NCBI RefSeq assembly: GCF_018228765.1
Contig: NZ_CP073695.1
Span: 1,612,001 to 1,676,000, forward strand
Origin: Halorubrum ruber
GTDB taxonomy: Archaea; Halobacteriota; Halobacteria; Halobacteriales; Haloferacaceae
Length of the DNA: 64,000 nt
Reading direction: 5' to 3'
A program made the position numbers and the translations under genes. This document shows, piece after piece, positions 21,573-28,490 of the stretch. How positions within the stretch are numbered: position 1 is the stretch's first letter; each line of letters opens with the position of its first letter. Under the pieces are notes generated by a model. That model saw only the letters and a program-made list of their open reading frames with translations, did not search any database and was not told the origin of the DNA.

Positions 21573-22141
21573 CCGCGGAGTCGACCGGACCAAGCGGCGC
21601 GGTCGACGCGCTCGTCACGGCGCCCGAGAGCGGCGCCCCGCCCGTCCGCCGCGACGCGGTCGAGATCCGCCCCGACGGCGTCGAAGGCGACCGCTACCGC
21701 AGCGGCGACGGCCACTTCCAGCTCGACGCCTGCGCGGTCACCCTCGTCGCGGCGGAGGCGGTCGCCGCCGTCCGCGAGGAGACCGGCATCGACGTGCGCG
21801 ACGGCCGTCACCGCCGGAACGTCGTTGTCGATGGGTTCGGCGCCGAGATGGACGCGCTCCTCGACGCGACCGTCGCGGTCGGCGACGCCCTCCTGCGACC
21901 GACCCGGCGTCGGCCCCCCTGCGCGCACGTCGAGGAACTCGCCGGCGAGGACGGGCTCGCGTCGGCGCTCCGCAACCGCGGCGGCCTCTGCTGTGACGTG
22001 GTTGAGCCGGGCCGCGTCGCCGTCGGCGACCCGGTGACGGTGCGCGAGGCCGACCCGCGGACCGCCGGCGCGGCGATCGCGGAGCGGTTGTCGGAGCGGG
22101 AGCAAACCGCAGAGGCGGAGCGAACCGCGGACCGAAAGTGA
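21569..22141 (+). CDS. MOSC-domain protein
   Basis: The 190-residue protein starts at GTG 21569, overlapping the cysK stop. It has the MOSC beta-barrel pattern: GVEGDRYRSGDGHFQLD near 37-53, DVRDGRHRRNVVVDG near 75-89, and the conserved sulfur-carrying Cys118 in TRRRPPCAHVEEL, followed by RGGLCCDVVEPGRVAVGDPV. MOSC domains carry sulfur or bind the molybdenum cofactor. Coupling to a cysteine synthase suggests a sulfur-handling role rather than a molybdoenzyme subunit, but this is inference. Confidence 0.85.
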   Translation: MTAESTGPSGAVDALVTAPESGAPPVRRDAVEIRPDGVEGDRYRSGDGHFQLDACAVTLVAAEAVAAVREETGIDVRDGRHRRNVVVDGFGAEMDALLDATVAVGDALLRPTRRRPPCAHVEELAGEDGLASALRNRGGLCCDVVEPGRVAVGDPVTVREADPRTAGAAIAERLSEREQTAEAERTADRK

Positions 22142-22292
22142 ACACCCCGACCGATCGCCGCGAGAGGACGGTTTATACGGGTCGCACGAGAGGACCGAGA
22201 CGAGACGTGAACCGCGGAGTCGACGCCACGAGCGCTCGGAGCCCCTCAGCAGTGAATCGACCGGACCAGGCGGCGCGGGGGCGGCGGTCGGC

Positions 22293-23510
22293 GTGAACTG
22301 GCGCTACCGCCACACGGTGTTGACGCTGTGTATGCTCGCCTTCTTCGTGACGTACTTCGCCCGGCTGGCGATCAGCCCGGTGGTCCCCCTGATCATCGAC
22401 GACTTCGAGGTCTCGAACACGGCGGTCGGCGTCGCGCTCTCCGGGATGTGGTTCGCCTACGGGCTCTCGCAGTTCCCGAGCGGAATCTTAGCGGACCGGT
22501 TCGGCGAGCGCCGCGTCATCCTTGTCGCGGTCGGCGGGACCACTGCGATGAGCCTCCTGCTCGCCGTCGTGCCCGTGTTCCCCGCGTTCGTGCTGGCGGC
22601 GGTGCTTCTCGGGCTCGCGGCGGGGCTCCACTACGCGGTGGCGACCACGCTGCTCTCGCGGACGTTCGACGACCTCGGCACCGCCGTCGGGATCCACTCG
22701 CTCGGCGGTCCGCTGGCGGGTCTCGTCGCGCCGGTCGCCGCGACCTGGGTCGGCGTCCGCTACGGCTGGCGCCCGGGCGTCGCGCTGGCCGCGCTCGTCG
22801 GCGTCCCCATCTTCGTCTTGTTCGCGCGGCGAGTCCGGCCGACCGAGCCGCGGCGCCCGGACCAGTCGATGGCGGAGCGGCTCCGGCTCGCGCCGCTGCT
22901 CGAACTGATCGGGCGGCGCGAAGTCCTCGTCCCGCTCGCGGTCGCGACGCTCGGGACGTACGTCGCGCAGGGCGTCATCTCCTTCCTGCCGACGTTCCTC
23001 GTCGAGCTCCGCGGGTACTCGCCCGCGTTCGCCGGCGGCGTCTTCTCCGCGTTCTTCGTCGTCCGCGCCGGCGCGCAGGTCGGGCTCGGCCGGCTCTCCG
23101 ACCGGCTGGGCCGCGACGCGAGCATCGCCGTCGCCCTTCTCGGCGGCGCGCTCGGCCTCGGAGGGTTGGTCGCGCTCCCCGACCTCGTCGAACTCCCGGC
23201 CGCGGTCGGGCTGCCGGCGCTCCCGACGCTCGCCGGCCTCGGGGTCGCCGTGTTCCTCGCCGGCCTCGGCTCCTCGTTCTTTTCGGCGATCGACCCGCGC
23301 TTCATGGACGCGCTCGGCGACGCGGAGCGCGGCGCAGGCTTCGGGCTGATCCGGACCGTCTACACGGTCATCGGCTCCGCGGGCTCGGTCGGCGTCGGCC
23401 TCGTCGCGGACCTGTTCGGCTGGGCCGCGTCCTTCGCCGTCATCGCCGGCATGTCCGGGCTCGCGTTCCTCGTCATCTCGGTGAACGCGCTCGTCGGCGA
23501 GGGGCGGTGA
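22293..23510 (+). CDS. major facilitator superfamily transporter
   Basis: The 405-residue protein has about twelve membrane helices in two halves of six. The loop after helix 2 carries the MFS motif ILADRFGERRVIL near residues 68-80, and the equivalent loop in the second half is LGRLSDRLGRDASIAVA near 268-284. No signature names the substrate. The GTG start at 22293 places the first helix right after NWRYRH. It lies 151 bp after the MOSC gene, so it could be part of the same unit or separate. Confidence 0.9.
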   Translation: MNWRYRHTVLTLCMLAFFVTYFARLAISPVVPLIIDDFEVSNTAVGVALSGMWFAYGLSQFPSGILADRFGERRVILVAVGGTTAMSLLLAVVPVFPAFVLAAVLLGLAAGLHYAVATTLLSRTFDDLGTAVGIHSLGGPLAGLVAPVAATWVGVRYGWRPGVALAALVGVPIFVLFARRVRPTEPRRPDQSMAERLRLAPLLELIGRREVLVPLAVATLGTYVAQGVISFLPTFLVELRGYSPAFAGGVFSAFFVVRAGAQVGLGRLSDRLGRDASIAVALLGGALGLGGLVALPDLVELPAAVGLPALPTLAGLGVAVFLAGLGSSFFSAIDPRFMDALGDAERGAGFGLIRTVYTVIGSAGSVGVGLVADLFGWAASFAVIAGMSGLAFLVISVNALVGEGR

Positions 23511-23520
23511 GTCCCTCCGG

Positions 23521-25614
23521 TCAGCCGACGTACCGTCGCCGCGTCGTCCGCTCGCCGCCGGGGCCGTACACGGTGACGACCTCCCCCTCGTCGTCGAGAG
23601 CCGGCGCACCGCGGCCGAGGTAGTGGTCGGTCGCGGTGTCCGTGCCCGATCCGACGTGAACGGTGAGGGTCTCGTCCGGGCCGAGCGTCGCGCCGGGGAG
23701 CTCGTCGCGCTGGCCGTCGAGATCGATGACGTAGCCGGTCAGGTCGATCGGGTCGTCCGCGGCGTTGCGCAGCGTCACCGACTCGTCAAGTGGGCCGCCC
23801 GACCCGTCGCCGACGCCGCTCCCCGGCCCGGCGTCGACGGCGTGGATCACGAGGCCGTCGGGGTTCGCCTCCGCCGCGAACTCGGTGATATCGGCGAGCG
23901 TGTACCTCTCGGTCGGGGTTGGCTGCGGGAGGCTCGGCTCCCAGTCGTCGGGCGCGGCGTTCGGGTACGCCGTCTCGTCGGCCTCGATCAGGCCGATCAG
24001 CGTCTCAGCGACGATCCGGCTGCCGACCGCGCCGAGGCGCTCGCCGTCCTGCTGGTGCTCGGCCTCCGCGAGCACGTAGTACCACAGCGGCGAGTCGGGG
24101 TCGGCGCCGCGGTCGTGCGCTCGCAGCGTCTTCATGATCGGCGAGTCCTCGCCGAACGCCTCGTTGCGGATCGGGTCGTACCCCATCCGCGCGGCGACGT
24201 CCTGGCCGGAGGGGATCCCGAGCGCCTTCGCGCGACGGAGGTTCCGGACGGCGAGCGAGGAGTCGCCGGAGATGGGCAGGTCGAACAGCGTCGGCGCGAG
24301 GAGCGGCTCCGTCTTCCGCGCCGGCTGGTAGTCGCCGTCGCCGGTGTCCAGCAGGCGTGACCAGTCGACGACGAGGTCGCTCGGGACGGGACGGCCGCCG
24401 CGGAGGTTCCGGCCGTCCCCGGCCCCGGTCGGAAACAGCGGCACCTCGCCGACCTCGTCGTTGACGTCGAACGCGTGCCGGATCATGCTGTGGCCGAAGC
24501 GGTAGGCGGCGCCACCGAACTCGACGGGAATCGCCGGCGTTCGCCCCGGCGGGACGAAGTGCTGTCGGCCGCGCTCCTCGATGTCGTCGAGGACGTATCG
24601 GTCGCAGATCCGCGGCAGGAAGTCGTGTCGCACGACCCACTGGTAGTGCCACCTGACGAGCCGCTGGGCCGCTTCGAGGACGGACTCGCCCCCTTCGACA
24701 AGGTCGGAGCCCGGGCCGCGCAGGTGGTCGACGACGCGGTTGTGGAAGTTGACGAACGCGAGCTGAAGCTGCGAGACGACGACGTTCTCGTCGTTGCGCG
24801 GGTCACCGATCAGCGCCACCCCCTGCTCGTTCCGCTGGAGGTCGGTCCCCGGGAGCCCCGAGAGGCCGCCGCCGTCCTCGGCGTCGGGCGCGGCCGCCTC
24901 GCCGGTGAGCAGCTTGCGCTCGTTCGTCTCGTGGTCGTAGAGGAACGGCGCCGCCTCGGCGTTCGTCCGGTACAGGGAGTCGAGGTCGAGCGCCGGCGTC
25001 CGGAAGTTCCGCAACGCGGCCGGGTCGTTCCGTCGGTCGATGTCCGAGGTCGGGTCGAACGTGACGTCGTGGTCGACGAACTGGCCGAAGATGCCGTAGC
25101 CGGCGGGCGTCTCGGCGTCGCCGACCGGGTCGTCCGGGGACTCCATCATCGGCGCGTCCGCCTCGCCGTCGGCGCCGCCGAGCGTCCGGAGCAGGTCCTC
25201 GTCGCGCTCGTACGGATCGAGCCCCGGGAACTGCGTGTGGAACCGGTGGCTCCTGACCGGCCCGGCGGCGGTACACGCCGCGTCGTTCATCCCCCGGTGT
25301 TCGGTCCCGCCGTGGATCGCGACGTTGTGCGCGTTCACCGTCAGGCGAAGCGCCGCCTCGTCTCCGTCCGGCCGGTCTCGCCGTCGGACCGACTCCTCGT
25401 CGCCCCCGCCGGCGGGGTTCCGAACCGTGAACGAGACGTCGTCCACGTCGACGCCGCCGTCCGCATCGAGGACGAACCCCCCGTCGTCGCCGGTCGTCCA
25501 GTAGCCGATCCGGTCCCCGTCGCCGCCCCGCCGCTCGCCGACCACGACCCGACCCGCCAGCGGCCGGTCGTCGCCGTCCACGACGCGACAGCGTATCTTG
25601 CCAGTAGTACCCAT
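23521..25614 (-). CDS. animal-type haem peroxidase with C-terminal lamin-tail domain
   Basis: The 697-residue protein has three parts. Residues 5-95 look like a beta-sandwich adhesion-like domain. Residues about 120-570 are an animal haem peroxidase domain: the distal His182 lies in FGQFVDHDVTF, the proximal His375 in YRFGHSMIRHAF, and NRVVDHL and AEHQQDG are also family-typical. Residues about 605-690 form a lamin-tail (LTD) domain, with SVTLRNAADDPIDLTGYVI. No signal peptide is seen. Such peroxidases are rare in archaea and may be acquired. The ATG at 25614 is preferred over a TTG five codons upstream. Confidence 0.85.
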   Translation of the reverse strand: MGTTGKIRCRVVDGDDRPLAGRVVVGERRGGDGDRIGYWTTGDDGGFVLDADGGVDVDDVSFTVRNPAGGGDEESVRRRDRPDGDEAALRLTVNAHNVAIHGGTEHRGMNDAACTAAGPVRSHRFHTQFPGLDPYERDEDLLRTLGGADGEADAPMMESPDDPVGDAETPAGYGIFGQFVDHDVTFDPTSDIDRRNDPAALRNFRTPALDLDSLYRTNAEAAPFLYDHETNERKLLTGEAAAPDAEDGGGLSGLPGTDLQRNEQGVALIGDPRNDENVVVSQLQLAFVNFHNRVVDHLRGPGSDLVEGGESVLEAAQRLVRWHYQWVVRHDFLPRICDRYVLDDIEERGRQHFVPPGRTPAIPVEFGGAAYRFGHSMIRHAFDVNDEVGEVPLFPTGAGDGRNLRGGRPVPSDLVVDWSRLLDTGDGDYQPARKTEPLLAPTLFDLPISGDSSLAVRNLRRAKALGIPSGQDVAARMGYDPIRNEAFGEDSPIMKTLRAHDRGADPDSPLWYYVLAEAEHQQDGERLGAVGSRIVAETLIGLIEADETAYPNAAPDDWEPSLPQPTPTERYTLADITEFAAEANPDGLVIHAVDAGPGSGVGDGSGGPLDESVTLRNAADDPIDLTGYVIDLDGQRDELPGATLGPDETLTVHVGSGTDTATDHYLGRGAPALDDEGEVVTVYGPGGERTTRRRYVG

Positions 25615-25803
25615 GGTATGATAAACCAATCATCAGCGAGAAAAAATTTTCTAAATGAACTTTCAACGAGTTTCGCGGATCATGTTGCTGGTTCGATCGC
25701 GGCGTGCCGGGGGTTCGATCGCGGCGTGGCGGGACTGGGTCTCGCGTGCGAACGCGTTCCGTGCGACCCGAACCTTCGAGTCGGACCGTGACGAACGGCC
25801 ACC

Positions 25804-26589
25804 GTGTACGACTACCACGCCCACACGAACTACTCGGACGGGGCGTTCCTGCGCTGGATGGTCGACGCGGCCGCGGACGCCGGGCTCGACGGGATCGGGT
25901 TCGCCGACCACTGTAACGTGTCGCCGGAGCCGAGCGCGCGGCGCTACAAGCGCGCGCTGGGGTTCAACCTCGACATGACGTACGAGCGGCGCCGCGAGGC
26001 CATCGAGGCGGTCCGCGAGGACGCAGCGATCGACGTGTTCGACGCCGTCGAGATGGACTACGACCCCGCTCACGAAGCTGCGATCGCCGAGTTCCTCGAT
26101 GATGCCGGCTTCGACTACGCGGTTGGGAGCGTCCACGACCTCGACGGCGCGAACGTCCACACGCGCTCGCACTTCGCCGACAAGTCGGAGGCGGAGCGGC
26201 GTGAACTGGTCGACCGCTACTTCGAGAAGCTGGTCGCCCTCGTCGAGTCGGAGCAGTTCGCGATCGCCGCGCACCCGGACCTGATCGAGCGCAACCCGCA
26301 CCTCCGCGGCTTCGCGACCGAGGACCACTACGCCGCGGTCGCCAACGCGTTTCGAAGTTCGCGGACGGTCCCGGAGATCAACGCCGGACGCCTGCTCGAC
26401 GACTACGGGGAGTTCCACCCGGCGCCCGCGTTCCTCGACCGCCTCGTCGACGCCGGCGTCGAGGTGACCGTCGGAACCGACAGCCACGAACCGGACGAGA
26501 TCGCGCCCAGAACCCGGGAGATCGAAGCGGAGCTCGACCGGCGGGGGCTAGGAGCGGTTCGGCTCGATCAAGTGGCGAAGAAAGCCTGA
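25804..26589 (+). CDS. PHP-domain phosphatase (histidinol-phosphatase-like)
   Basis: The 261-residue protein starts at GTG 25804 with the metal site His5-Ala-His7 (DYHAHTNYSDG). Further metal ligands are in GFADHCN near 36, VGSVHDLDG near 112, AIAAHPDLIERN near 156 and VTVGTDSHEPDEI near 222. These match the PHP family, whose HisK-type members remove phosphate from histidinol phosphate; other phosphoesters are possible. No other his genes are nearby, so the histidine role is tentative. Confidence 0.85.
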   Translation: MYDYHAHTNYSDGAFLRWMVDAAADAGLDGIGFADHCNVSPEPSARRYKRALGFNLDMTYERRREAIEAVREDAAIDVFDAVEMDYDPAHEAAIAEFLDDAGFDYAVGSVHDLDGANVHTRSHFADKSEAERRELVDRYFEKLVALVESEQFAIAAHPDLIERNPHLRGFATEDHYAAVANAFRSSRTVPEINAGRLLDDYGEFHPAPAFLDRLVDAGVEVTVGTDSHEPDEIAPRTREIEAELDRRGLGAVRLDQVAKKA

Positions 26590-27251: not shown

Positions 27252-28490
27252 TTACGCCTCGTCGAACAACGTCTCGCCCTCGACCATGTGCTCCTCGACG
27301 GCGTCCATGTCGAGGGTGAGGCCGAGGCCCGGCTCCTCCGGCACCTCGATGTAGCCGTCCTCGATGACGTCCTCCTCGACGAGGTCCTCCCACCAGCCGA
27401 GCTCGTAGGAGTGGTACTCGATCGCGAGCGAGTTCGGGATCGAGGTGCCGACGTGGGCCGCCGCCATCGTCGCGATCGGCGAGGCGACGTTGTGCATCGC
27501 GACCGGGACGTAGTACTGGTTCGCCACGTCCGCGATCTTGCGGGTCTCGCGCATGCCGCCGACCTTCGGCAGGTCGGGCGCGACGATGTCGACCGCCTGG
27601 TTCTCGATGAGGCGGCGCAGCTCGGTGACGCGGTAGCGGTTCTCACCGACCGTGATCGGCGTGGTCGTGTTCTTCGTGACCTCTTCCTGGACTTCGAGGT
27701 TCTCCGGCGGGACGGGGTCTTCGAGCCACCACACGTCGTACTCCTCGATGGCGTCCGCGAGGCGCTTCGCGGAGCCGCCCGAGAACGTCCAGTGGCAGTC
27801 GAAGGAGACGTCGGCCTTGTCCTTCACGCGCTCGGTGACCTTCTCGACGATCTCCGCCTTGTGGCGGATCTCGCCGGGGCGGAGATGGCGGTTCGCGCGG
27901 TCCTTCTCGAACCCGCTCGGCACGTCGAGGTCGAACTTCAGGGCGTCGTAGCCCAGCTCATCGACGACGCGCTCGGCCTCATCGGCGCAGGCCTCTGGGT
28001 CCGCCTCGTCCTCGGTGTGGCAGTCGCAGTAGACGCGCATCTTGTCCCGGTACTTCCCGCCGAGCAGCTGGTAGGCGGGCACGTCGAGGATCTTCCCGGC
28101 GAGGTCGTGGAGCGCGACCTCGATGCCGGAGATGGCCGTGACGGTGACGCCCTCGACGGAGCCCTCGCCGGACATCTTCTGGATCAGGTGCTCGTAGAGG
28201 CGGTCGATGTCGAGCGGGTTCTCGCCGACGACGAACGGCTTCATCCGCTCGATGAGTTCGGGCACGCCGGCGCCCCAGTACGCCTCGCCGGTGCCGACGA
28301 CGCCCGCGTCGGTGTACACGCGGACGAGCGTCCACGGGAAGTTCCCGTCGACCATCGTCGTCTGCACGTCCGTGATCTCGACGTCGCGGCCGCCGCCGCG
28401 CGTCCCCGTGGTCCCCATCGTCTCGGCGGAGAGCTCTCGCATCGTGTACTCCGCATTCGGGTCGTGGAGTGACTCGTAGTTTCGGCTCAT
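27252..28490 (-). CDS. enolase-superfamily sugar-acid dehydratase (gluconate/xylonate type)
   Basis: The 412-residue protein has the mandelate-racemase/muconate-lactonising capping domain (residues 36-160) and barrel. Barrel metal ligands are in SFDCHWTFSGG near 228, WWLEDPVPPEN near 256 and ITVGENRYRVTE near 282. The catalytic His lies in VAMHNVASPIATMAAAHVG near 338. Haloarchaeal homologues dehydrate D-gluconate (semiphosphorylative Entner-Doudoroff) or D-xylonate; I cannot separate these by eye. No other sugar-pathway genes are adjacent. It has a palindromic promoter region. Confidence 0.87.
   Translation of the reverse strand: MSRNYESLHDPNAEYTMRELSAETMGTTGTRGGGRDVEITDVQTTMVDGNFPWTLVRVYTDAGVVGTGEAYWGAGVPELIERMKPFVVGENPLDIDRLYEHLIQKMSGEGSVEGVTVTAISGIEVALHDLAGKILDVPAYQLLGGKYRDKMRVYCDCHTEDEADPEACADEAERVVDELGYDALKFDLDVPSGFEKDRANRHLRPGEIRHKAEIVEKVTERVKDKADVSFDCHWTFSGGSAKRLADAIEEYDVWWLEDPVPPENLEVQEEVTKNTTTPITVGENRYRVTELRRLIENQAVDIVAPDLPKVGGMRETRKIADVANQYYVPVAMHNVASPIATMAAAHVGTSIPNSLAIEYHSYELGWWEDLVEEDVIEDGYIEVPEEPGLGLTLDMDAVEEHMVEGETLFDEA

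What the first reader, a model, noticed from the sequence alone, without database searches (positions are those of the whole stretch)
23521..25614. Animal-type haem peroxidase with lamin-tail domain in an archaeon
Distal His182 and proximal His375 motifs are intact, and the protein adds an N-terminal beta domain and a C-terminal LTD. Peroxidases of this family are mostly bacterial and animal. The fusion to a lamin-tail domain, often found in exported or surface proteins, is odd because no signal peptide is seen.
Basis: partly seen in the sequence, partly recalled or inferred. Interest (0 to 1): 0.5.

Follow-up and report, generated by a model that had tools for sequence, protein, structure and literature searches.

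The report
Lamin-tail-fused haem peroxidase in Halorubrum
A salt-loving archaeon carries an intact relative of lactoperoxidase and myeloperoxidase, fused to two extra beta domains and apparently kept inside the cell; it looks like an old, often-lost gene rather than a recent import, and its activity is untested.

Summary
On the minus strand, 25614-23521, an intact 697-aa ORF encodes a peroxidase-cyclooxygenase superfamily (PF03098) enzyme with a C-terminal lamin-tail domain and a poorly resolved N-terminal beta domain. The superfamily's signature residues are present (Q178, D181, H182, R273, E276, H375, N458) and identical in all 94 aligned homologues. D181 and E276 predict doubly ester-linked haem; N277, where myeloperoxidase has Met243, argues against myeloperoxidase-type chlorination. 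No signal peptide fits in frame. Recent transfer into Halorubrum is unlikely: 11 of 52 Halorubrum genomes have the gene, all within about 2 kb of the same enolase-like gene; its tree largely matches the flanking genes, and one genome keeps a deleted remnant. In the class, 22 of 391 genomes match PF03098. The haloarchaeal sequences group together (91/76) within a bacterial family, compatible with one old acquisition. The lamin-tail fusion seems to have arisen once, in the larger haloarchaeal subclade; none of 71 bacterial homologues shows it. Best reading: a cytosolic haem peroxidase of unknown substrate, perhaps Br-/I-/SCN- or small phenols, distinct from the near-universal KatG family. New architectural variant of a known superfamily.

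The parts
23521..25614 (-). whole gene: haem peroxidase with N-terminal beta domain and C-terminal lamin-tail domain, 697 aa
25321..25614 (-). N-terminal beta domain, residues 1-98 (transthyretin/CarboxypepD_reg-like, weak)
   Evidence: predicted all-beta; Foldseek best E 4.1e-3; CarboxypepD_reg below cut-off in 3 of 9 related haloarchaeal proteins scanned
23869..25320 (-). peroxidase domain, residues 99-582
   Evidence: PF03098 59.3 bits; Z 27.0 to Cyanobacterium TDX16 peroxidase 8s6c over model residues 116-595; median dN/dS 0.17
25066..25086 (-). distal motif GQFVDHD, residues 177-183: Q178 (halide site), D181 (haem ester), H182 (distal His), D183 (Ca2+)
   Evidence: roles from PMC4420034 section 7
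24787..24798 (-). R273-N-D-E276: catalytic Arg and second haem-ester Glu
   Evidence: roles
24490..24492 (-). proximal haem ligand His375
24241..24243 (-). Asn458, expected partner of the proximal His
23530..23865 (-). lamin-tail domain, residues 584-695
25647..25655 (-). AT-rich TATA-like element TTTAGAAAA upstream of the start (promoter role inferred)
   Evidence: same in G048, G010 and G008, one- or two-base variants in G046 and in the G028 remnant; other genomes not looked at
22293..23510 (+). flanking gene, MFS transporter by my reading of the translation
   Evidence: no family scan was run
25804..26589 (+). flanking gene, PHP-type phosphoesterase by my reading of the translation
   Evidence: no family scan was run
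27252..28490 (-). enolase-superfamily-like gene by my reading; within about 2 kb of the peroxidase in all 11 peroxidase-bearing Halorubrum genomes (next to it in G030, G037 and G003; the PHP gene lies between in the other 8)
   Evidence: no family scan was run

Best explanation
It is a functional, stand-alone, cytosolic haem peroxidase of the peroxidase-cyclooxygenase superfamily, closest to short bacterial peroxidases. Proximal His375 (expected to bond to Asn458) holds the haem iron, and H2O2 is split by distal His182 and Arg273 to give compound I. The haem is expected to be attached by two ester bonds (Asp181, Glu276), with Ca2+ probably bound next to the distal His. Compound I then oxidises a small substrate: most likely an easily oxidised halide or pseudohalide (Br-, I-, SCN-) bound near Gln178, or a small phenol, because the third (sulfonium) link that gives myeloperoxidase its chlorinating power is not encoded (Asn277). 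The N-terminal and lamin-tail beta domains are appended modules, probably for interaction or stability in high salt. Shown here: motifs, intact reading frame, purifying selection, predicted fold, absence of an export signal, gene history. Inferred: haem linkage, calcium, substrate, role of the extra domains.
For: PF03098 above cut-off; seven signature residues identical in 94 of 94 aligned homologues, 23 haloarchaeal and 71 bacterial; the predicted structure matches solved superfamily members with Z about 22-27 over 370-424 residues. The peroxidase part is under the strongest constraint (median dN/dS 0.17, maximum 0.25, 28 pairs of 8 Halorubrum orthologues; LTD 0.27; N-domain 0.43). Acidic protein, pI 4.5, without a hydrophobic N-terminus. 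Position 277 is N in 93 of 94 rows and T in one. Genes of the KatG family (PF00141) are in 50 of 52 Halorubrum genomes, so bulk H2O2 removal should not depend on this gene.
Against: I found no biochemical data for these archaeal proteins. 41 of 52 Halorubrum genomes lack a full-length copy, so its benefit is conditional, and the substrate cannot be read from context: no identified neighbour recurs across genera. Absence of a Sec/Tat-like N-terminus does not exclude another export route. The structure model is only moderately confident (mean pLDDT 76.9, pTM 0.67). The homologues were picked by similarity, so invariance is partly built in. Of the calcium site only D183 (Glu in 3 of 23 haloarchaeal rows) and the conserved D210 and D212 were looked at.
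Confidence: 0.62

Rival explanations
1. A recently acquired bacterial gene in this one lineage.
For: Bacterial homologues are many and diverse, and presence in haloarchaea is patchy.
Against: Same chromosomal neighbourhood in all 11 positive Halorubrum genomes; peroxidase and flank trees agree apart from G024 and G046; remnant in G028. By score the nearest sequences outside Halorubrum are four haloarchaea (469-521 bits), the best bacterium reaching 350; identities overlap (38-50% in haloarchaea, 47% or less in bacteria).
Confidence: 0.04
2. A general antioxidant peroxidase/catalase that removes H2O2 using cellular reductants, with no halide role.
For: Haem peroxidase fold and intact residues; a related bacterial enzyme also has catalase activity (RbMPO, passages read).
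Against: KatG-family genes are already in 50 of 52 genomes; the Gln implicated in halide binding is invariant in 94 of 94 rows.
Confidence: 0.25
3. An exported or surface-attached enzyme, with the lamin-tail domain as the anchoring module.
For: Some lamin-tail domains of other Halorubrum proteins sit on proteins with lipoprotein-like starts (L094, L101, L104).
Against: No in-frame room for a signal peptide and no hydrophobic N-terminus in any of the 16 LTD-bearing haloarchaeal rows (maximum 0.90; L127 was trimmed by hand).
Confidence: 0.08

Closest known systems
Cyanobacterium TDX16 peroxidase (PDB 8s6c) and other short bacterial peroxidases of the peroxidase-cyclooxygenase superfamily
   Same: Same peroxidase fold in the model (Z 27.0, 401 residues aligned, 19% identity) and best sequence match in the PDB.
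   Different: Archaeal, with an added N-terminal beta domain and a lamin-tail domain; none of 71 bacterial homologues scanned here shows a lamin-tail match at E 0.01.
Lactoperoxidase / myeloperoxidase
   Same: Gln-x-x-Asp-His-Asp, Arg-x-x-Glu, proximal His with Asn; same fold in the model.
   Different: About 17-18% identity in the structural alignment; no Met after the ester Glu, so no myeloperoxidase-type sulfonium link; no signal peptide.
RbMPO of Rhodopirellula baltica
   Same: Bacterial member of the superfamily with the conserved ester Asp and Glu; oxidises SCN- > Br- > Cl- (passages read, PMC10204396).
   Different: Not compared by sequence here; bacterial.
Other haloarchaeal PF03098 proteins
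   Same: Same group in the tree (91/76 support).
   Different: Of 11 found outside Halorubrum, seven lack the lamin-tail domain and four have it but lack the N-terminal domain as far as the translations show; of the homologues found here only the Halorubrum ones combine all three parts.

Membership tests
Peroxidase-cyclooxygenase superfamily (PF03098) | PF03098 above gathering score | tested here: met
   59.3 bits against 25
Peroxidase-cyclooxygenase superfamily (PF03098) | X-G-Q-X-X-D-H-D-X distal signature | tested here: met
   GQFVDHD at 177-183; signature from PMC4420034 section 7
Peroxidase-cyclooxygenase superfamily (PF03098) | R-X-X-E with catalytic Arg and ester Glu | tested here: met
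   R273-N-D-E276
Peroxidase-cyclooxygenase superfamily (PF03098) | proximal His paired with Asn | tested here: met
   H375 and N458 are identical in 94 of 94 rows; their contact in a haem-bound structure was not tested
Peroxidase-cyclooxygenase superfamily (PF03098) | overall fold | tested here: met
   predicted model only: Foldseek E 2.4e-15 and Z 27.0 to 8s6c; myeloperoxidase, lactoperoxidase and cyclooxygenase at Z about 22-24
Peroxidase-cyclooxygenase superfamily (PF03098) | haem bound through two ester bonds | not testable with these tools
   residues present; chemistry needs purified protein
Myeloperoxidase-type chlorinating peroxidase | Met at the third (sulfonium) haem link, after the ester Glu | tested here: not met
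   Asn277; N in 93 and T in 1 of 94 rows; role of Met243
Short bacterial peroxicin (family 5) | placement in that clade of the published tree | not tested
   the published family 5 sequences were not used here; only similarity to short bacterial peroxidases was shown
Lamin-tail domain (PF00932) | profile match above gathering score | tested here: inconclusive
   31.5 bits as protein and 34.9 bits in the six-frame search, cut-off 34.3; 52.9 bits in the Halorubrum orthologue L092

The most novel reading that the evidence does not exclude
An intracellular haloperoxidase in a salt-in archaeon: because the haloarchaeal cytosol is molar in chloride (recalled knowledge), even an enzyme with poor chloride kinetics would make hypohalous acid inside the cell on demand, for example to halogenate metabolites or as a suicidal or antiviral response, with the lamin-tail domain directing it to a target. 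Rough arithmetic: the 5.46 per M per s reported for RbMPO with chloride would be about 20 turnovers per second at 4 M.
Probability: 0.12. Interest if true: 0.7.

Novelty: new variant of a known kind. Interest (0 to 1): 0.32.

Why it matters
Archaeal members of the lactoperoxidase/myeloperoxidase superfamily seem scarcely described: the review read here says members occur in all domains of life, but the part of its section that I read (1 of 2) names no archaeal enzyme, and the complete listings for haloarchaea + heme peroxidase (3 papers), Halorubrum with superfamily names (8 papers) and peroxicin + archaea (1 paper) show no study of these proteins. If active, this would be a covalent-haem peroxidase working in a molar-chloride cytosol, which would make the link between haem modification and halide choice testable under unusual natural conditions.

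Tried and rejected
Recurrent operon partner: ORF clustering of 15 loci (4 of the 11 Halorubrum ones and the 11 others), within 7.5 kb, listed only clusters in 3 or more loci. Clusters away from the gene were three limited to G161, G206 and G357 (one genus) and one that also held G131; none was identified. The rest were the peroxidase or frames overlapping it. Mobile element or virus: no match in 50,697 phage records. Of 37 plasmid records with a match, 34 are bacterial and three are haloarchaeal with a lamin-tail match only. Compensation for missing KatG: rejected, PF00141 is in 50 of 52 genomes; the two without a match, G029 and G043, also lack the peroxidase. Origin of the lamin-tail domain from other lamin-tail proteins of the same genus: not supported, since the 13 peroxidase LTDs used form one side of a branch (100/99) against 16 others; only Halorubrum proteins were sampled for the 16. 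Close link with Salinibacter, a hyperhalophilic bacterium: its plasmid peroxidase falls just outside the haloarchaea but on a long branch joined to another long branch, so no conclusion. N-terminal domain identity: no Foldseek match below E 0.001. NCBIfam found nothing at E 1. A composite haem peroxidase gene reported in haloarchaea (PMC5992828, one passage read) is described there as heme peroxidase or chlorite dismutase joined to a monooxygenase-type domain, so not this one.

Rows dropped before counts: the search for related loci kept the best 80 of 91 relatives. Of its 73 bacterial loci, L075 and L080 were left out as short or cut (71 used). L002-L007 were left out of the trees because their contig lengths show them to be the contigs of G020, G008, G010, G046, G003 and G011. 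L127 was trimmed to its last 656 residues. Flank tree: 19 of 21 genomes; G037 and G003 had too few flanking genes. The first residue table was misnumbered by five and was replaced, which counts from the ATG. No formal test of tree congruence was run.

Full report
What is there. The 64-kb window lies on a single-contig 3.02-Mb chromosome, by protein identity of a Halorubrum: the best named matches are Halorubrum sp. Atlit-26R and H. distributum JCM 10118, at 93-94%. The gene is on the minus strand, ATG at 25614, stop ending at 23521, 697 residues. The longest frame starts only five codons earlier. G+C of the two 2-kb blocks that hold it (0.733 and 0.707) is within the window's range of 0.655-0.734, although the first block has the strongest AT skew (-0.252) of the table.

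Domains. Pfam finds An_peroxidase (PF03098, 59.3 bits, cut-off 25) and a lamin-tail domain (PF00932, residues 584-695, 31.5 bits, cut-off 34.3). I accept the lamin-tail domain because it passes the cut-off in the six-frame search of this genome (34.9 bits) and clearly in the orthologue L092 (52.9 bits). It is the only lamin-tail match found in this genome. The N-terminal 98 residues are predicted to be a small all-beta domain at modest confidence; the best structural neighbours include intradiol dioxygenases, transthyretin and pilin domains, none below E 0.001, and 3 of 9 related haloarchaeal proteins scanned show CarboxypepD_reg below its cut-off.

Catalytic anatomy. The superfamily review (PMC4420034; passages, section 7 part 1 of 2) lists G-Q-X-X-D-H-D, R-X-X-E and a proximal His bonded to Asn as signatures, with the Asp and Glu forming ester bonds to haem, the second Asp binding calcium and the Gln implicated in halide binding. 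All are present: Q178, D181, H182, D183, R273, E276, H375, N458. In an alignment of 23 haloarchaeal and 71 bacterial proteins, Q178, D181, H182, R273, E276, H375 and N458 are identical in 94 of 94 rows; D183 is Glu in 3 haloarchaeal rows. The homologues were chosen by similarity, so invariance is partly by selection. The residue after the ester Glu is Asn in 93 of 94 rows and Thr in one, where myeloperoxidase has Met243, the third haem link tied to chlorination (PMC10204396, passages). The predicted structure (mean pLDDT 76.9, pTM 0.67) matches solved superfamily peroxidases over residues of about 116-584, best the Cyanobacterium TDX16 peroxidase 8s6c (Z 27.0, 4.0 A over 401 residues), then Dictyostelium peroxidase, dual oxidase, myeloperoxidase, lactoperoxidase and cyclooxygenase.

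Selection and location. Across eight close Halorubrum orthologues (28 pairs) median dN/dS is 0.17 in the peroxidase part, 0.27 in the lamin-tail part and 0.43 in the N-terminal part (own Nei-Gojobori script), so the protein is maintained and the catalytic part most of all. None of the 16 haloarchaeal rows that carry the lamin-tail domain has a hydrophobic N-terminus (best 13-residue mean 0.90 at most); the seven without it reach up to 1.75, inside the N-terminal domain. Of five other lamin-tail proteins as a control, three reach 3.1-3.4 and two do not. Four of 71 bacterial homologues reach 1.6 or more (all). The protein is acidic (pI 4.5).

Distribution. Full-length homologues are in 11 of 52 Halorubrum genomes. 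PF03098 is matched in 22 of 391 haloarchaeal genomes sampled from the class, in 8 of 86 genera. In a sample of 392 genomes of the phylum, 6 match, all of them also in the class sample. Of the 11 matches outside Halorubrum, seven have the peroxidase without a lamin-tail domain and four have peroxidase plus lamin-tail without the N-terminal domain (L114, L118 and L119 were judged from translation, alignment and tree, not by a Pfam scan). Among the homologues found here only the Halorubrum proteins carry all three parts. None of 71 bacterial homologues has a lamin-tail match at E 0.01; one has a beta/gamma crystallin domain.

History. In the more careful tree (95 rows) the 23 haloarchaeal rows are one side of a branch with support 91/76, in 92% of 200 bootstrap trees; in the quick tree (94 rows) they needed two changes, with one long-branched bacterial row (L053) unresolved among them. 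One old acquisition from bacteria is therefore likely but not proven; several bacterial rows next to the clade are long branches. The lamin-tail domains of the 13 peroxidases used form one side of a branch (100/99) against 16 lamin-tail domains of other Halorubrum proteins, which suits a single fusion in the ancestor of the larger haloarchaeal subclade (16 of the 23 rows).

Inside Halorubrum the gene lies within about 2 kb of the same enolase-like gene in all 11 positive genomes: directly next to it in G030, G037 and G003, and with the PHP gene in between in the other eight, where the peroxidase sits between the MFS and PHP genes. By my count from the coordinates, of the 41 genomes without a full-length copy 22 have the MFS and PHP genes adjacent with gaps of about 67-135 bases, seven have larger gaps (about 0.4 kb in G013, about 1.2 kb in G001, G005, G007, G012 and G022, 10.8 kb in G033), G028 has the remnant, and in the other 11 the pair was not found. 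The positive genome G030 also has the two genes adjacent (91 bases), its peroxidase lying on the other side of PHP. The peroxidase tree agrees with the tree of flanking genes except for G024 and G046: the flank tree joins G046 with the G011 group (91/98) where the peroxidase tree does not (52/21), and the peroxidase tree joins G024 with the window's group (93/99) where the flank tree does not (68/76). None of these four branches is starred, and no formal congruence test was run. Mapped on the flank tree (19 genomes, 9 positive) the gene needs at least four changes. G028 keeps, between the same neighbours, a stretch at 90% identity that covers the upstream region and roughly the first 275 bases of the gene, joined to its last bases, with about 1.8 kb in the middle deleted. 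Loss is thus shown in one genome and is the simplest account of the others; exchange of the region with other strains by recombination is not excluded.

How it probably works. See Best explanation. The step from compound I to a substrate is inference. The absence of the myeloperoxidase-type Met argues for a lactoperoxidase-like range (SCN-, I-, Br-), but the cytosol of these archaea holds molar chloride (recalled knowledge), so chloride oxidation cannot be excluded. RbMPO oxidises chloride with 5.46 per M per s (passage read). PF00141 (KatG-family) genes are in 50 of 52 Halorubrum genomes, so this enzyme is unlikely to be the main defence against H2O2.

Literature. Complete listings were seen for haloarchaea + heme peroxidase (3 papers), Halorubrum with animal heme peroxidase and related names (8 papers) and peroxicin + archaea (1 paper). 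Only the top of the list was seen for haem peroxidase with archaea or the superfamily name (15 of 38), lamin tail domain with archaea or prokaryote (20 of 36,705), lamin tail domain with haloarchaeal terms (12 of 1,164), bacterial peroxidase/LspiPOX terms (12 of 69) and haloarchaea with hypobromous acid and related terms (10 of 653). No listed paper appeared to study these proteins. Passages were read in PMC5992828, PMC3396595 and PMC10204396, and passages plus part of a section in PMC4420034; the others were seen as listings only. PMC4420034 states that members occur in all domains of life, so archaeal membership as such is not new.

Verdict. An intact, conserved, patchily kept member of a known superfamily with a domain arrangement not seen in the bacterial homologues sampled. 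Interesting for its setting, not for a new principle.

Noticed in passing
L171:9248-9716 (genome G028): Remnant of the peroxidase gene: upstream region and about the first 275 bases at 90% identity joined to the last bases of the gene, with the middle deleted, between the same two neighbours.
   Followed up: yes
L181:9967-10084 (genome G042): A 118-base stretch 80% identical to part of the lamin-tail end of the peroxidase gene lies elsewhere on the chromosome; G042 has no full-length peroxidase.
   Followed up: partly
L182:10175-13723 (genome G030): Gene order differs: peroxidase between the PHP and enolase-like genes, whereas in the window the PHP gene lies between the peroxidase and the enolase-like gene.
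   Followed up: partly
L008: The most similar bacterial sequence (47%) is on a record titled Bifidobacterium breve MAG; the locus is 66% G+C and groups with a Solirubrobacteraceae row in the tree, so the title is probably wrong.
   Followed up: no
L196:5013-6458: A plasmid of the hyperhalophilic bacterium Salinibacter ruber carries a 481-aa peroxidase that falls near the haloarchaeal clade on a long branch.
   Followed up: partly
L180:4069-5141 (genome G032): The MFS gene next to the site matches as two separate pieces in this genome and may be broken.
   Followed up: no
window 22001-24000: This 2-kb block has the strongest AT skew of the window (-0.252).
   Followed up: no
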